A stretch of DNA of 64,000 nt from Kingdonia uniflora (taxonomy: Eukaryota; Streptophyta; Magnoliopsida; Ranunculales; Circaeasteraceae), in contig JACGCM010002493.1 in the NCBI GenBank assembly GCA_014058105.1, positions 124,001 through 188,000 on the forward strand. Reading direction: 5' to 3'. The translations under genes and the position numbers were made by a program. Each line of letters starts with the position of its first letter. The stretch's first letter is position 1. Of the stretch, positions 5,953 to 10,633 are shown in pieces. The notes under the pieces are model-generated. The model did no database searches and was not told the origin of the DNA. It saw nothing but the letters and a program-made list of their open reading frames with translations.

Positions 5953-8043
5953 ATGTCTGCTACTCTTCTTGTACAGGTTAATAATTATGTTTCCACCATT
6001 TTATTTATTGTGAATAGTGTGTTTGTTGGTTGTCATGGTAGATGGTAGTTCCATGTTTGAACTTCTGGGTAGATTAATAAAGTGTTGGGTACGGTTGAGG
6101 AAGGAGGCCTGTTTGATTATAAAATGTTGAATAGATTTTTCCTGTATGTGGTAGATGCGCTCCAAAAATCTGAAACCCAGTAGTAAATTTTTGGTATCTT
6201 CCAGTAGTGAGGAATCATCATCGTCTGGCAGGACTATGGATGATTCGGAGGTGAGGGGCACTATAACTGTTGATAAGCCTGCTGCTGCTCATTCTGGGGT
6301 GAATGGGAGATTGGAAGTGGAGGTTGAAACTGGGGAGTTCTTTAAGTATCCCGCTGATGTAGACATAGGGAAGACATTTTCCAAGTATAACAAAGATTTA
6401 GATGGAAAATGGGGGCAATATCTGATGAATGCCGGGTTATAGTTTAGGACTCTGGTGAGACCAGGTGGTAGGATAGAGCATTATCAAGTGCCTTCCCTGG
6501 ATCAATGAAAGATAAATATGGGAATATGAGATGATGTAAAAATTTCTTATTATAACGACACTGGTGCTGAGGTCGTAGAGGAAGGGTTCCTTTGCTTCCT
6601 GAACCAGGTCGTGTATGGGTTGAACATTCCCCTAAATTTTTTCCAAAAGGGGTAATGAATGCTCTAATGAGTTGCCCTGCCCAATTAAATGGCAATGTTT
6701 TCGAGATGATTAGGGTTTGTGAAGCCCTTAACAAGAAATGGAGAGATGATGATATTGCAAGGCAGTTCGTTGCTGACAATGTCTTGAAGTATTACAAGTT
6801 GAAATATGTGGAAGGTCGGAAGAGTGGATACTTGTATAATGATTTGGTGAGGCCAAAATTCTTTGATTTTGAATCTGCTGGGAGGCCCTGGTGCGACCAT
6901 CTTGTGATGGTGAGGGGTAATTGTATGCAAGTGCCTGGTGAGCCGGCGCTCGAGCTGATATATAAGAATTTTAACGAGAGTAAGTGTCTTCATTCTGCCT
7001 GTAGTTCATCTTTTATCTTGTTGCAAGCTACTAACATAGTTTGTTGTTGATTTGGCAGAGCCTAATCCAAAAGGCATTGCTGATACGTCGAGTTTGTTCG
7101 ACGTTATATCTCGAGAAGGAACTGGTCTGAACCAAGTACTTGGGGAGTTAGGTATCCGTCGAGATAAAAGGCTGAACTCTGTTGTTGCAAAAGTTTAACG
7201 AGCTCATCAGAATCGAGCTATGGCTACTTCTGGTTTTGCTTTTGATGGGGTTATAGAGATTCCTGCCTGTGCGGCTGGTATTCCGAGTATGCAAAATTGT
7301 CGACGCAGGTGGGGACTGAGGTGGTGGATGCTGATGTCAATGTGGTGCCTCCTGTGAAGAAGCAAAGGCAAGAGGTGAAACCTAAACGAGCTTCTTCAAA
7401 AGAACTCGATCTTGATGTGGTGGGGTAGGCGTCTCGGGGAGTTGGCTAAGCATGATCCAAAGCATCTGAATGCTGAGTTTAAATCCAGCATGTCTCAGGT
7501 ATGTATGATGTTGTTGTTTGACTATCTATTCTTAAGAAATGACATGATTGATAATTATATTGTGGTGTACTTGTGGTATAGTTGACTGTTACGTGGGAAT
7601 AAGCTTTGGAGGTGTTGATGGCAGGTGCTGCGGATCGTGTCAAATTTGTTCGATAACATGATGCAGAGAAAGCTACACTGCGAGAACAGTTCGAGAAGGA
7701 GCAAACTGCTTTGTGTGAGCAGTTAAAGGATCAGATGGAGAAGGAAAAAGTTGTGTAGAAGGAGCAGTTCAAGGCAGAAGCTGTTGTTATGAAGAAAGAG
7801 GTAAAAAATGATGCAAAGAAGACTTTCAACAATGTGTTGGCTACTCGAAATAGTCTGATTAAAGCATTTTACTCCTGGGGGTTGACTAAAGATGATATCA
7901 ATCTTGCTATTGCTGGGAAGTACAGTGAGATAATCTTCCTAGAGGAGGATGCCTCTCTAATGGCTGATCGACCTTCTGAGCAGGCCCTGGCTTCTCCAGC
8001 AGCTGATGTTATGACCAAGGAGGTAGCAGGTGCTAATTCTTGA
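5953..8043 (+). pseudogene. Antisense gene A of Tat-A: intron-containing, unknown protein
   Basis: Proposed exons: 5953-5976, 6155-6979, 7059-7498 and 7582-8043, with introns 5977-6154, 6980-7058 and 7499-7581, all GT-AG. The first join gives MSATLLVQ then MRSKNLKP in frame; the second joins NFNE to KPNPKG in frame. The protein has a Ser-rich start, a globular part with VVEEGFLCFLNQVVYG, GVMNALMSCPAQLNGNVFEM and ARPKFFDFES-like blocks, and a charged coiled-coil end finishing VAGANS. The same protein is in Tat-C (64000-62297, minus). Tat-A has TAG at 6440 and TGA near 6505 where Tat-C has Trp, and more stops downstream, so this copy is dead. The globular part faintly recalls plant transposon-associated N-terminal domains; function unknown. 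Confidence 0.72.
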
Positions 8044-8189
8044 TTATGTAGTTGTAACCTTGTTTTGAGACTTGTCTGGTCGAATTTGTCATTTGTATTG
8101 GTGATAGTTATATTTTTGGTGAGACTTGACAAAATTTTGTTTGGGTTGCTATTGATATATGTTGTTTTGATGGTGAATGTATAATTTGC

Positions 8190-8747
8190 ATGTAAGAGGT
8201 AGTTCGTTTGAGGGGAAAAGTGAGCGAGATAGAGAAGGCCTTGATTCGAGCAAGGGATTCCATCAATCATGCGCAATAGGTACACAATAAACTTGAATAT
8301 GAGAGATGTCTTCATAAGTCTAACTTTGATAACACCTTTAAGGAGTTATTCGAGCTGCAATGTAGATATAAGAAGATAAAAATTGAGAGGGATGAGGTTT
8401 TACAAAAAGAGAGCGATAGGTTTGCCTTATTCCAAAAATCCCTTAAGGATAAGTTATTCGCAGATGAGAGTGATAAGTTAAAGTATCAAAGGTCATTATT
8501 GTCTTTGAAGCTTTACATTGAGGCCGAAGTTGATAGTGATTGGGGCTTGAAGGAGGCCTATTTAGATCTGCTAATTGAGAGAGGTGCAGTGCCAGACCCA
8601 GCTCGGGTGAAGTTCTTAGTGCAAGAAGCGCGTAATCGTCATAGTATAAAGGCTAAAAGATGTTCAGATCGGGATGGAGTATCCATCATATGGGGTGGTG
8701 TAGGTTCATTGCCTGATGAACTCGACTTTTGTAGGGGCAAAGAATGA
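8190..8747 (+). pseudogene. Antisense gene B1 of Tat-A: coiled-coil protein
   Basis: Continues the antisense cassette. In Tat-C the same frame starts with ATG at 62164 (MCMYEVVRLRGKV); here the corresponding bases read ATGTAAG, a stop straight after Met, and a TAG follows near 8278. The body is heptad-like and charged (FKELFELQCRY, IKIERDEVLQKESDR) and ends with a more globular part, VPDPARVKFLVQEARNRHS and GVSIIWGGVGSLPDELDF, which is nearly identical in Tat-C. It ends in TGA overlapping the next ORF start by ATGA in both copies. No family recognised. Confidence 0.6.
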
Positions 8748-10633
8748 TGAGGATCCTTTTCTTCAATATAAAGAAGGAAGATAAAAGGGTCCAGACATGT
8801 TTAATAAATGATATGAAGTATGCACGTAACGTACTGGAGCGATGTAAAGAACATAATGCATGTCTAGAGAGGGAAAATGTTGAGTGTAATAAGCTATTGC
8901 AGAGTTCAGAAAGGAGGGTTAAGTTGTTGGAAGTGCGTTTAAGAGATACACAGAAACGTCTGTAAGTGTCCCAAACGCGTTTGAAGGGATATCTTACTCC
9001 AAAGCGAGGGAACCGTGCTGTTACAATGGATCATGAACGTCAGATAGCCGATGTGATCGAGTTTTATGGGGGCGAGCTCGAGAGGGTAGAGAATGAATTT
9101 AGACGTTATATCTCGACTTGTGGTAAAGATGTTGAAGTAAAGAATGATATGGTTAAAAATATGTGGTTTGCAAAAGGTAATGAGGGTGGGGGAGCTTCAG
9201 CCTCGAGGCCGTGAGCTGAAGAGTTTGAAGAGGAGGAGGTTAAAGATCTGTTACCTCACACGCGACATAAGACTCGTCATCAAGATGTCATAATCTTCGA
9301 TGAACCTCTGCAAGTAGATGTGAGTAGTAGTAGGGTTTCACCATAAGCCAACTAAACTGTAGAATATATTTGTGCTTTACATAATGTAGTTGATTTGTGT
9401 AGTCGTAAAAATAATATCTTATCTTGATATTGTAAGAAATGTTGTTGAATGATATATCTTACTTGCATGAATATCTGTTGATAAATGTATTCCATTTGTA
9501 ATATGTTCTTCTAGGCTGAAGTCAATAAACAAAACAAACTGGCTATTTTATCCGTATCAAATAATGAACTGACTGCAAAGTTGTGGTAGTGTTCGCTGGC
9601 GGTTGAAAATATAACCTTTTTAAATTCAAAGCAGGAGGCGGATATGTTAGAACTGCAGAGTTGGTTAAATGCTGTGACTGTGGAGTTGTCATGTAAGGAT
9701 GCAGAAATATTGACTGCTAATAATGAAGCCGAACTGTGGAAAGAATCTCTAAAGAAGAAAAAATTGGAAACCATGGTTGCGAACCAACAATAACTGGATC
9801 TGTCAAGTACGATTGAAAAATAGAAGAATCAATCGGTAGTAACAGATCATGCGAATCTGCTAAAGAAGCATGATGCTGAACTCCGTAATATGCGAGATTG
9901 TCTGAAATAGTTAAGGTGGGATTTGCGTGAGGCTCGAGATTCTTGTCAGATAAAAAGTGATTGTGCCAGAACTCATGAAGAAGCATGTACAAAGAGAGAT
10001 CAAGAGCTTAGCGTAACCATCAATAAGTGTGACACACGGATCGCCGATCTAGAGCGGGCAAAGCATGCCTTGGAACTTGAATGTATGCAAGGAAATGTGG
10101 TTTATGAGGAGCTCCATATGAAGTATAAGGAGTTGCAAAAGTTGATGGATGCAGAGAATGATAGCGAGTATTGTCAGGAGTTGTGTGAGAAGTTGCTATG
10201 TATGAAGCAGGATATGGGTTAAAGTGTACAGATAATAAAGCTGTATAAATATTCGTTGCTAAAGGAGAAAGAGTATCTGGTAGATCGATGCAGGGATCTT
10301 GAGGATGAGCTAAACAAGGTGAAGATCGAACTTGGTGAAGCTATGCTGTTGACTGCAGATAATGCTACATTGCGCACTATGGATATGTTGCATGCTGATG
10401 TAGAGAAATTGCGGCAAGAGCGTGATTCGATCTTGGCTGCTTCGTCCGAGCACGGTATGGAGTATGATATGCAGCTCGTGCAATTACTTTATATAGATAA
10501 TTTGATGCCCAGAGTTATGGAACTGCTGAATGCGTCTTCTGCTGTAGTTGAAGCAGCTATACCTTTCTCTGCCTTACTTTCGTTTGGCCCTGGGGAAAGT
10601 TTGAATGCTGTACGCCCGAAGCGTGAAGAATAG
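8744..10633 (+). pseudogene. Antisense gene B2 of Tat-A: long coiled-coil protein with an intron
   Basis: Starts at the ATG overlapping the B1 stop. Exon 1 (8744-9319) reads MMRILFFNIKKEDKRV, ERVENEFRRYIS and a run ending IIFDEPLQVD. A GT-AG intron (9320-9514, acceptor ttcttctag) joins D to AEVNKQNKLAIL in frame. Tat-C shows the same join. Exon 2 is a long coiled coil (LREARDSCQIKSD, CDTRIADLERAKHALELE, CRDLEDELNKVKIEL) with a Pro/Gly-rich tail, PFSALLSFGPGESLN. Stops at about 8963, 9190, 9589, 9791 and 10220 make it a pseudogene. Its 3' end faces the tandem repeats. No known domain; the length and heptads suggest a structural or tethering role, by inference only. Confidence 0.6.

What the first reader, a model, noticed from the sequence alone, without database searches (positions are those of the whole stretch)
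5953..10633. Antisense, intron-containing gene cassette inside a retrotransposon, conserved in two copies
Between pol and the 3' LTR of Tat-A, on the strand opposite gag-pol, lie three ORF blocks (A, B1, B2) with four GT-AG introns that join in frame (5977-6154, 6980-7058, 7499-7581, 9320-9514). Tat-C carries the same genes at 64000-59714 on its antisense strand, with matching exons and mostly matching splice sites. Retrotransposition normally removes introns; introns antisense to the genomic RNA are invisible to that splicing and would persist. Antisense ORFs are known in some Tat elements (for example Grande), but a multi-gene spliced cassette of coiled-coil proteins would be notable. The long coiled coils suggest a structural role; this is inference.
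Basis: partly seen in the sequence, partly recalled or inferred. Interest (0 to 1): 0.87.

Follow-up and report, generated by a model that had tools for sequence, protein, structure and literature searches.

The report
Spliced antisense gene inside plant retrotransposon
A family of mobile elements in the plant Kingdonia uniflora carries, on the strand opposite its own gag-pol genes, a gene with a conserved TATA-type promoter motif and introns at fixed positions; it is predicted to be spliced into a mostly coiled-coil protein that likely helps control the element.

Summary
The window is Kingdonia uniflora. Between pol and the 3' LTR of Tat-A, and again in Tat-C, the strand opposite gag-pol carries one conserved gene. 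Its introns are physically present in every alignable copy among 22 near ones. In a distant subfamily (exon 2 DNA 71% identical to Tat-A) introns 6980-7058 and 7499-7581 recur at the same places in 12 of 12 copies: donor bases are 97-99% identical to Tat-A while intron interiors are 30-43% identical. Tat-A vs Tat-C dN/dS on the spliced frames is 0.38 (0.32-0.45), against 0.76 and 0.99 in the other two frames of that strand; gag-PR is 0.20. It also missed an intron joining blocks A and B1 (8023-8195) and an upstream ORF (4246-4581). Tat-A and Tat-C themselves are dead copies. Antisense accessory ORFs in Tat/Retand elements are known; a multi-intron one did not appear in my searches. Transcription, splicing and function are untested. 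Pfam's TRP28 domain is not matched.

The parts
3293..3964 (-). 3' LTR of Tat-A
   Evidence: 93.5% identical over 664 bp to 28680-29343; the last 8 bases to 3964 (ending TTACA) are read from the sequence
28680..29351 (-). 5' LTR of Tat-A, with the primer-binding-site region just inside it
   Evidence: the outer end is approximate and no clean target-site duplication was seen
4246..4581 (+). Upstream ORF E0 (about 110 codons), a separate small ORF or a 5' coding exon
   Evidence: matched by annotated Kingdonia proteins; A vs C dN/dS 0.39 (0.22-0.63), stops 0 and 1 against 5-10 off-frame; no signal in pooled near copies (0.80, an off-frame 0.78)
5780..5812 (+). Putative core promoter: TATAAAA followed by a pyrimidine patch; inferred start site near 5812
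   Evidence: TATAAAA intact in 17 of 21 rows (A and 20 near copies; 3 carry one change, 1 lacks the stretch), TATAAAAG in C; TATAAAAACTCGTC plus CT-rich patch at the matching place in 5 of 6 distant copies, 24-27 of 33 bases identical to A
5812..5976 (+). Leader (5' UTR) exon, start inferred
   Evidence: ends at CAG|GTTAAT in A, GTTAGT in most near copies, ACAG|GTTGGT or GTTAGT in distant copies; the ORF frame over it shows no clear selection
5977..6154 (+). Intron 1 (5'-leader intron)
   Evidence: present in 20/20 alignable near copies, GT 17/20, AG 19/20; equivalent donor in 5 of 5 distant copies measured
6155..6979 (+). Exon 2, main ATG at its first base; most conserved protein domain
   Evidence: A vs C dN/dS 0.37 (from 6374) and 0.21 for two parts, 0.64 (0.36-1.23) for its first 100 codons; 1.3 stops per copy against 28-30 off-frame in 22 copies
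6980..7058 (+). Intron 2 (79 nt), GTAAGT ... TACTAAC ... CAG
   Evidence: 22/22 near copies, GT 21, AG 21; same position in 12/12 distant copies, GT 12/12, AG 9/12, interior 43% identical to A
7059..7498 (+). Exon 3 (55-nt deletion and frameshifts in Tat-A)
   Evidence: A vs C dN/dS 0.43, 0.65 and 0.29 by part, the last two with intervals reaching above 1; gap at 7303
7499..7581 (+). Intron 3 (83 nt)
   Evidence: 18/18 alignable near copies, GT 16, AG 15; donor at the same position in distant copies, GT 11/12, AG 9/12, acceptor aligned about 12 columns further on
7582..8022 (+). Exon 4, start of coiled-coil region
   Evidence: A vs C dN/dS 0.54 (0.32-0.87); gene models run from here into B1
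8023..8195 (+). Intron 5 (not in the finding), joins block A to B1; unspliced, block A ends at TGA 8041-8043
   Evidence: 18/18 alignable copies, GT 15, AG 12; acceptor mutated in A (AA) and C (AT); annotated models read ..TKE|EVVRLRG..
8196..8747 (+). Exon 5, block B1 coding segment to its stop
   Evidence: A vs C dN/dS 0.33 (0.20-0.54); its part 8607-8730 0.30 (0.10-0.79)
8744..9319 (+). Block B2 first part: ATG overlapping the B1 stop (ATGA); acceptor-like TAG ends at 8734
   Evidence: A vs C dN/dS 0.35; TAG acceptor-like site in 16 of the 17 copies shown (18 examined)
9320..9514 (+). Intron 4 (195 nt)
   Evidence: 19/19 alignable near copies, GT 16, GC 3, AG 18; not tested in distant copies
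9515..10633 (+). Block B2 second part, long coiled coil, to TAG
   Evidence: A vs C dN/dS 0.35 (0.25-0.50); helices in the model of P0003, which covers part of B2
10850..11888 (.). 157-bp tandem array between cassette and pol
   Evidence: Tandem Repeats Finder, 6.7 copies; equivalent array at 58894-59543 in Tat-C
15364..17040 (-). gag-protease ORF of Tat-A, opposite strand
   Evidence: PF03732 E 1.5e-9; dN/dS vs C 0.20
14338..15348 (-). Reverse transcriptase ORF pieces of Tat-A
   Evidence: PF00078; piece 14707-15348 dN/dS 0.25
59714..64000 (-). Tat-C cassette (continues beyond the window; 5' part read in L029)
   Evidence: alignment to A; L029

Best explanation
The cassette is an accessory gene carried on the antisense strand of a Tat/Retand-like Ty3 retrotransposon family, with a conserved TATA-type promoter motif and introns at fixed positions, and it is predicted to be transcribed toward pol by host RNA polymerase II, spliced by the host, and translated into a mostly coiled-coil protein that likely regulates the element's own expression or nuclear steps. 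Shown here: position and orientation (two copies in the window; pol on the opposite strand downstream in one distant copy), selection on the spliced frames between Tat-A and Tat-C, intron positions shared with a distant subfamily, and a conserved core-promoter-like block. Inferred: promoter activity, transcription, splicing, the protein's action, and why the introns stay. The proposed reason is that the replicating genomic RNA is the opposite strand, so the splice signals read backwards and are not removed, while the gene's own mRNA is not the template for new copies. A further inference is two products: A-B1 ending at its own stop, and a form reaching the B2 coiled coil through an alternative acceptor at 8734 or re-initiation at the overlapping ATG.
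For: Spliced frames A vs C dN/dS 0.38 (0.32-0.45), n=1195 codons, against 0.76 and 0.99 in the other frames and 0.20-0.25 for gag-PR and RT. Stops per copy 1.3-4.9 in frame, 8.5-39 off frame, 17-22 copies per exon. Distant subfamily vs A: exon 2 71% identical, intron 2 donor +1..+6 99%, interior 43%, acceptor 89%; intron 3 donor 97%, interior 30%. Exon 2 similarity ends at 6985, the last base of the donor hexamer, in 8 of the 10 distant copies that gave a nucleotide match (12 examined). Core promoter shared by near and distant copies. Opposite-strand pol in a distant copy. Annotated Kingdonia models cross the intron 2 junction without gap in 38 of 60 and the intron 3 junction in 67 of 97 (a few of these are loose alignments). 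Coiled-coil helices. Indels are multiples of three in 43 of 107 in exons and 20 of 103 in introns and 3' flank, though 21 of the 43 have one same length, 15 nt.
Against: No RNA evidence. Within the near subfamily splice dinucleotides are not better conserved than other intron sites (0.943 vs 0.930, p=0.31). Pooled near-copy dN/dS is weaker (0.45-0.72 for the main exons), and for exon 3, exon 4 and E0 one off-frame is equal or lower, for B2b nearly equal (0.63 vs 0.66). Gene models agree less on intron 5 (16 of 89 ungapped) and intron 4 (9 of 33). Introns 4 and 5 were not tested in the distant subfamily. Both window copies are dead. The B1-B2 relation is unresolved. Opposite-strand pol was seen in 1 of 3 distant copies checked; the other two had none in the 4 kb fetched; it was not checked for the 20 near copies. 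The conserved domain has no confident fold and no Pfam match.
Confidence: 0.62

Rival explanations
1. The antisense transcript matters as RNA (double-stranded RNA with genomic RNA, siRNA source, transcriptional interference) and the ORFs are incidental.
For: Vicient and Casacuberta 2020 (PMC7264820, passages read) raise this role; both window copies are untranslatable end to end.
Against: Purifying selection on amino acids in spliced frames, ORF-like stop depletion, and introns whose boundaries outlive their interiors are not needed for an RNA-only role.
Confidence: 0.15
2. Three separate unspliced ORFs (A, B1, B2); the gaps between them are decay or spacers and the GT-AG pairs are chance.
For: B1 stop and B2 ATG overlap; the block A stop at 8041-8043 is present in 17 of 17 near copies examined there; some models end there (P0004, P0031).
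Against: Intron 2 and 3 boundaries are kept in a subfamily whose intron interiors have diverged; the coding frame changes across intron 2; introns are T-rich.
Confidence: 0.06
3. The cassette is a host gene (promoter, leader intron and coding introns included) captured in antisense by read-through genomic RNA of an ancestral element and kept since; its present role may be neutral hitch-hiking in some lineages.
For: Host-like architecture: TATA, pyrimidine patch, leader intron, GT-AG introns. Antisense capture through genomic RNA would preserve promoter and introns (inference).
Against: No relative outside Kingdonia found: 78/78, 113/113 and 46/46 hits are Kingdonia (candidate lists were capped in the first two); no Pfam family. 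Selection argues against pure hitch-hiking.
Confidence: 0.15
4. Chance ORFs or shadow of sense-strand coding.
For: One sense-strand frame shows dN/dS 0.52 (0.43-0.62).
Against: That is higher than the antisense frame (0.38); the other two sense frames give 0.86 and 1.01; intron boundaries and promoter block are conserved.
Confidence: 0.02

Closest known systems
Antisense accessory ORFs (aORF-3R) of Retand/Tat elements: Retand, Grande gene23, RIRE2, pvRetro ORF2 (PMC11963269, PMC7264820, PMC4093653)
   Same: [quoted passage not shown] Grande gene23 is reported to have its own promoter (PMC7264820 passage).
   Different: The word intron does not occur in the held main text of PMC7264820 or PMC11963269, and the latter scans unspliced ORFs; PMC7264820 itself asks for antisense and spliced transcripts to be looked for. 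Here there are five introns in the family, two shown at depth plus a shared leader donor, and a core-promoter block conserved across subfamilies. PF04195 is not matched. [quoted passage not shown]
HBZ and APH antisense genes of deltaretroviruses (PMC10186651, passages read)
   Same: Antisense gene of a retroelement, spliced, encoding a protein (bZIP in HBZ) with nuclear localisation that counters the viral transactivator.
   Different: Expressed from the 3' LTR there; here the TATA block lies about 1.8 kb inside the LTR end. No sequence relation tested.
Ogre and EVADE introns (PMC12786077, passages read)
   Same: Introns in plant LTR retrotransposons.
   Different: Those introns serve to generate subgenomic RNAs of the element by alternative splicing; here they are in a gene on the opposite strand.
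Terminons (PMC6431247, passages read)
   Same: Large retroelements with accessory coiled-coil ORFs.
   Different: Penelope-like telomeric elements of rotifers; no relation.

Membership tests
Ty3 (Metaviridae) LTR retrotransposon | LTR pair with gag, PR, RT, RNase H and integrase | tested here: met
   LTRs; PF03732, PF00078 and rve PF00665 above cut-off, protease below cut-off; RNase H not checked by a model
Retand lineage | RT phylogeny within Retand | not tested
Retand lineage | Antisense ORFs between pol and 3' LTR | tested here: met
   Tat-A; Tat-C: antisense to its gag-pol
Retand lineage | Antisense ORF encodes TRP28 (PF04195), 97% of clusters in PMC11963269 | tested here: not met
   no PF04195 among listed families for window pieces, 8 relatives, 56 relatives (25 of 51 families shown). 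By hand, 3 of the 6 conserved positions named in the paper (G21, P25, N47) fit at exact spacing in the motif YGLSIPL..QLNGN; L34, P46 and F55 do not
[quoted passage not shown]
   157-bp unit; unit longer than the 8-100 bp reported in PMC11963269
SMC-like antisense proteins | SMC domain match | tested here: not met
   Pfam lists only weak coiled-coil families among those shown
Spliceosomal intron-bearing gene | GT-AG introns at conserved positions with diverged interiors | tested here: met
   introns 2 and 3:
Spliceosomal intron-bearing gene | Spliced RNA observed | not testable with these tools
   no transcript data; the genome search for the spliced junction did not complete
HBZ-like antisense gene | Promoter inside the 3' LTR | tested here: inconclusive
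   the conserved TATA block is at 5780, about 1.8 kb inside the LTR end at 3964; promoter activity not tested

The most novel reading that the evidence does not exclude
A complete host-style gene (core promoter, leader intron, several coding introns, possibly alternative splicing giving two proteins) was captured in antisense through read-through genomic RNA and became a long-lived accessory gene of a retrotransposon family: antisense orientation is the one way a retroelement can replicate a gene through RNA and keep its promoter and introns.
Probability: 0.35. Interest if true: 0.82.

Novelty: new variant of a known kind. Interest (0 to 1): 0.68.

Why it matters
Retrotransposition is expected to strip introns and promoters. 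This family shows a way round it that the sequence supports: a gene on the opposite strand keeps both through RNA-based copying. The one large survey I read catalogues antisense genes of these elements as unspliced ORFs, so introns could have been missed, which may explain some of its short or absent antisense ORFs. The intron boundaries give exact junction tests for antisense expression, and the promoter block gives a place to measure its start. The closest functional parallel, spliced antisense HBZ of deltaretroviruses, suggests testing whether such proteins restrain their own element.

Tried and rejected
Fold comparison: the model of P0003 has mean pLDDT 57.9 and the conserved N-terminal domain is mostly below 50, so no fold search was run. 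Relatives outside Kingdonia: three protein searches gave only Kingdonia. Pfam on window pieces, relatives and distant relatives gave no family for the conserved domain. E0' (5637-5930), used as a coding first exon by several gene models, showed no clear selection (0.65, 0.36-1.22; pooled 0.79, an off-frame 0.54); it overlaps the TATA block, so I read it as promoter and leader. Splice-site conservation within the near subfamily has no power; the distant subfamily was used instead. Target-site duplication of Tat-A: not found. Papers: the listings of searches showed no report of introns in an antisense gene of a plant LTR element (two asked other things; two found no paper); only the papers named in this report were opened, in parts or passages. 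Two original papers, on extra ORFs and on Grande gene23 (DOIs tried), are not held, so this is not proof of absence.

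
Full report
WHAT WAS GIVEN AND WHERE IT IS. Protein relatives of the cassette are all Kingdonia uniflora (Ranunculales): 78 of 78 hits, 113 of 113, 46 of 46; taxonomy. The held genome G000 contains the window at C1112:124001-188000; that contig is 1,474,436 bases, the same length as the contig of the Kingdonia protein P0064.

THE ELEMENT. Tat-A lies on the minus strand with LTR copies at 3293-3956 and 28680-29343 (93.5% identical). 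A copia element with its own repeats at 17450-18509 and 27474-28540 is nested in it. gag, RT and integrase pieces match Pfam above cut-off. A 157-bp tandem array lies between cassette and pol in both A and C; PMC11963269 (parts 1 to 3 of 5 read) reports tandem arrays in about half of its Retand elements, with units of 8-100 bp. The stretch from the 3' LTR to the far end of the array is about 7.9 kb; the exact end of pol was not mapped. The survey gives 2,933-6,566 bp for pol to 3' LTR. I did not build an RT tree, so Tat/Retand is a label by architecture.

ORF BLOCKS AND DECAY. A and C align over the cassette. Both are dead: 16 stops in A and 14 in C in the scored frames, with frameshifting gaps. 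Annotated relatives nevertheless continue through the same exons and often join block A to B1 with the residues ..KE|EVVRLRG.., which pointed to the intron 8023-8195.

SELECTION. A vs C, NG86: all spliced frames 0.38 (0.32-0.45), block A 0.41, B1+B2 0.35; other two frames 0.76 and 0.99. Sense-strand frames 0.86, 1.01 and a shadow frame 0.52; gag-PR 0.20, RT 0.25. E0 0.39 (0.22-0.63), E0' 0.65 (0.36-1.22), first 100 codons of exon 2 0.64 (0.36-1.23), using the C sequence beyond the window. In the pooled set of A, C and L009-L028 values are 0.45 exon 2, 0.64 exon 3, 0.72 exon 4, 0.52 B1, 0.59 and 0.63 B2, 0.80 E0; for exon 3, exon 4 and E0 an off-frame is as low or lower, and for B2b nearly so. 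I attribute this to neutral decay after insertion and to unfiltered misaligned copies (inference), but it does weaken the case for those parts. Stops remain strongly depleted in frame: 1.32 per copy against 29.7 and 27.6 in exon 2, 4.89 against 32.9 and 38.8 in B2b.

INTRONS, NEAR COPIES. The DNA search scored 40 of 2,531 first-look candidates and listed 40 matches, the window's own included; 20 others were fetched. Alignable copies with the intron present: 20/20, 22/22, 18/18, 18/18, 19/19 for introns 1, 2, 3, 5, 4. GT donors 17, 21, 16, 15, 16; AG acceptors 19, 21, 15, 12, 18. The filter would drop a clean loss, but for intron 2 nothing was dropped. The splice dinucleotides are not better conserved than other intron sites here (p=0.31), so this set shows presence, not selection.

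INTRONS, DISTANT SUBFAMILY. Protein P0115 led to a divergent subfamily (187 matches; 65 of 18,003 first-look candidates scored); 12 copies were fetched over exons 2-4. Nucleotide similarity to A in exon 2 stops at base 6985, the end of the donor GTAAGT, in 8 of the 10 copies that gave a match; two gave none. Intron 2: GT 12/12, AG 9/12; intron 3: GT 11/12, AG 9/12 (counted from the alignment; the intron 3 acceptor falls about 12 columns beyond A's). Identity to A: exon 2 0.71, donor +1..+6 0.99, interior 0.43, acceptor 0.89; exon 3 0.58; intron 3 donor 0.97, interior 0.30; to C, whose intron 2 donor is broken, donor 0.82 and interiors 0.41 and 0.40. Boundaries that outlive the interior are what real introns leave. 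In a distant copy (C464) RT, RNase H and integrase pieces lie downstream on the opposite strand; in two others no pol was found in the 4 kb fetched. B1- and B2-like frames, read by eye, follow in that copy too. Introns 4 and 5 were not tested at this depth.

PROMOTER AND LEADER. TATAAAA at 5780 is intact in 17 of 21 rows (A and 20 near copies), followed by CTCGTCTTTCTCCCTCTC or close variants; C reads TATAAAAG. Five of six distant copies have TATAAAAACTCGTC and a CT-rich patch at the matching place, 24-27 of 33 bases identical to A, followed by a leader ending ACAG|GTTGGT or GTTAGT 223-224 bases downstream (197 in A) and an intron that ends a few bases before the ATG. The sixth copy, L043, has TATTAAAA there. 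Intron 1 of the finding is therefore read as a leader intron, and the proposed 8-codon exon as non-coding (24 stops in 20 copies, though dN/dS over its 23 columns is 0.13). Promoter activity is inferred.

B1-B2. B1 ends at a stop overlapping the B2 ATG (ATGA at 8744-8747); a TTTTGTAG acceptor-like site ends at 8734 and candidate donors lie at 8278 and 8607. Both the B1 part 8607-8730 (0.30, 0.10-0.79) and B2 (0.35) look constrained between A and C, so two products are possible; which way they are made is open.

PROTEIN. AlphaFold2 on P0003 with an alignment of 56 sequences gives long helices (421-489, most of 533-798, 859-925), mean pLDDT 57.9, and no confident fold for the conserved domain. 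Pfam gives no family for it. The TRP28 motif positions named in PMC11963269 fit at 3 of 6 by hand.

KNOWN AND NEW. Antisense ORFs of this kind are known (PMC11963269; PMC7264820, passages; PMC4093653, passages). Neither of the first two uses the word intron; PMC7264820 ends by asking for antisense and spliced transcripts to be looked for. Introns are known in Ogre and EVADE (PMC12786077, passages). Spliced antisense genes are known in deltaretroviruses (PMC10186651, passages). A multi-intron antisense gene with a leader intron and TATA block in a plant LTR element did not appear in the listings of searches.

VERDICT. Branch-point and pyrimidine-patch readings rest on recalled consensus motifs.

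Noticed in passing
window 18977-19741 (-): Sense ORF (255 aa) between pol and 3' LTR of the nested copia element matches Transposase_32 (PF20167, E 7.1e-7, below the curated cut-off), an extra ORF in a copia element.
   Followed up: no
window 41631-41948 (-): A diverged E0-like ORF (about 33-58% identical to relatives in the better hits) beside Tat-B, on the same strand as Tat-B pol, without the rest of the cassette detected.
   Followed up: partly
window 34599-34952 (-): Weak similarity (25-29%) to parts of two relatives, P0087 and P0111.
   Followed up: no
window 18063-18263, 20880-21113, 28096-28296: 50-bp tandem repeats with ATTCGAA motifs in the copia LTRs and again inside the element.
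   Followed up: no
window 30036-31223 and 32249-32746 (+): KIB1-4 beta-propeller gene (PF03478, E 1.8e-33; weak F-box match) with a nearby partial duplicate 95-96% identical over 368 bases.
   Followed up: no
window 50973-52196 (+): Pentatricopeptide-repeat gene; some annotated relatives fuse host domains (PPR, KIB1-4, RRM) with cassette pieces, probably gene-model artefacts or insertions.
   Followed up: no
window 38030-38443 (-): AMP-binding enzyme C-terminal fragment (PF13193).
   Followed up: no
window 10850-11888 and 58894-59543: Same 157-bp period tandem array kept in A and C next to pol.
   Followed up: no
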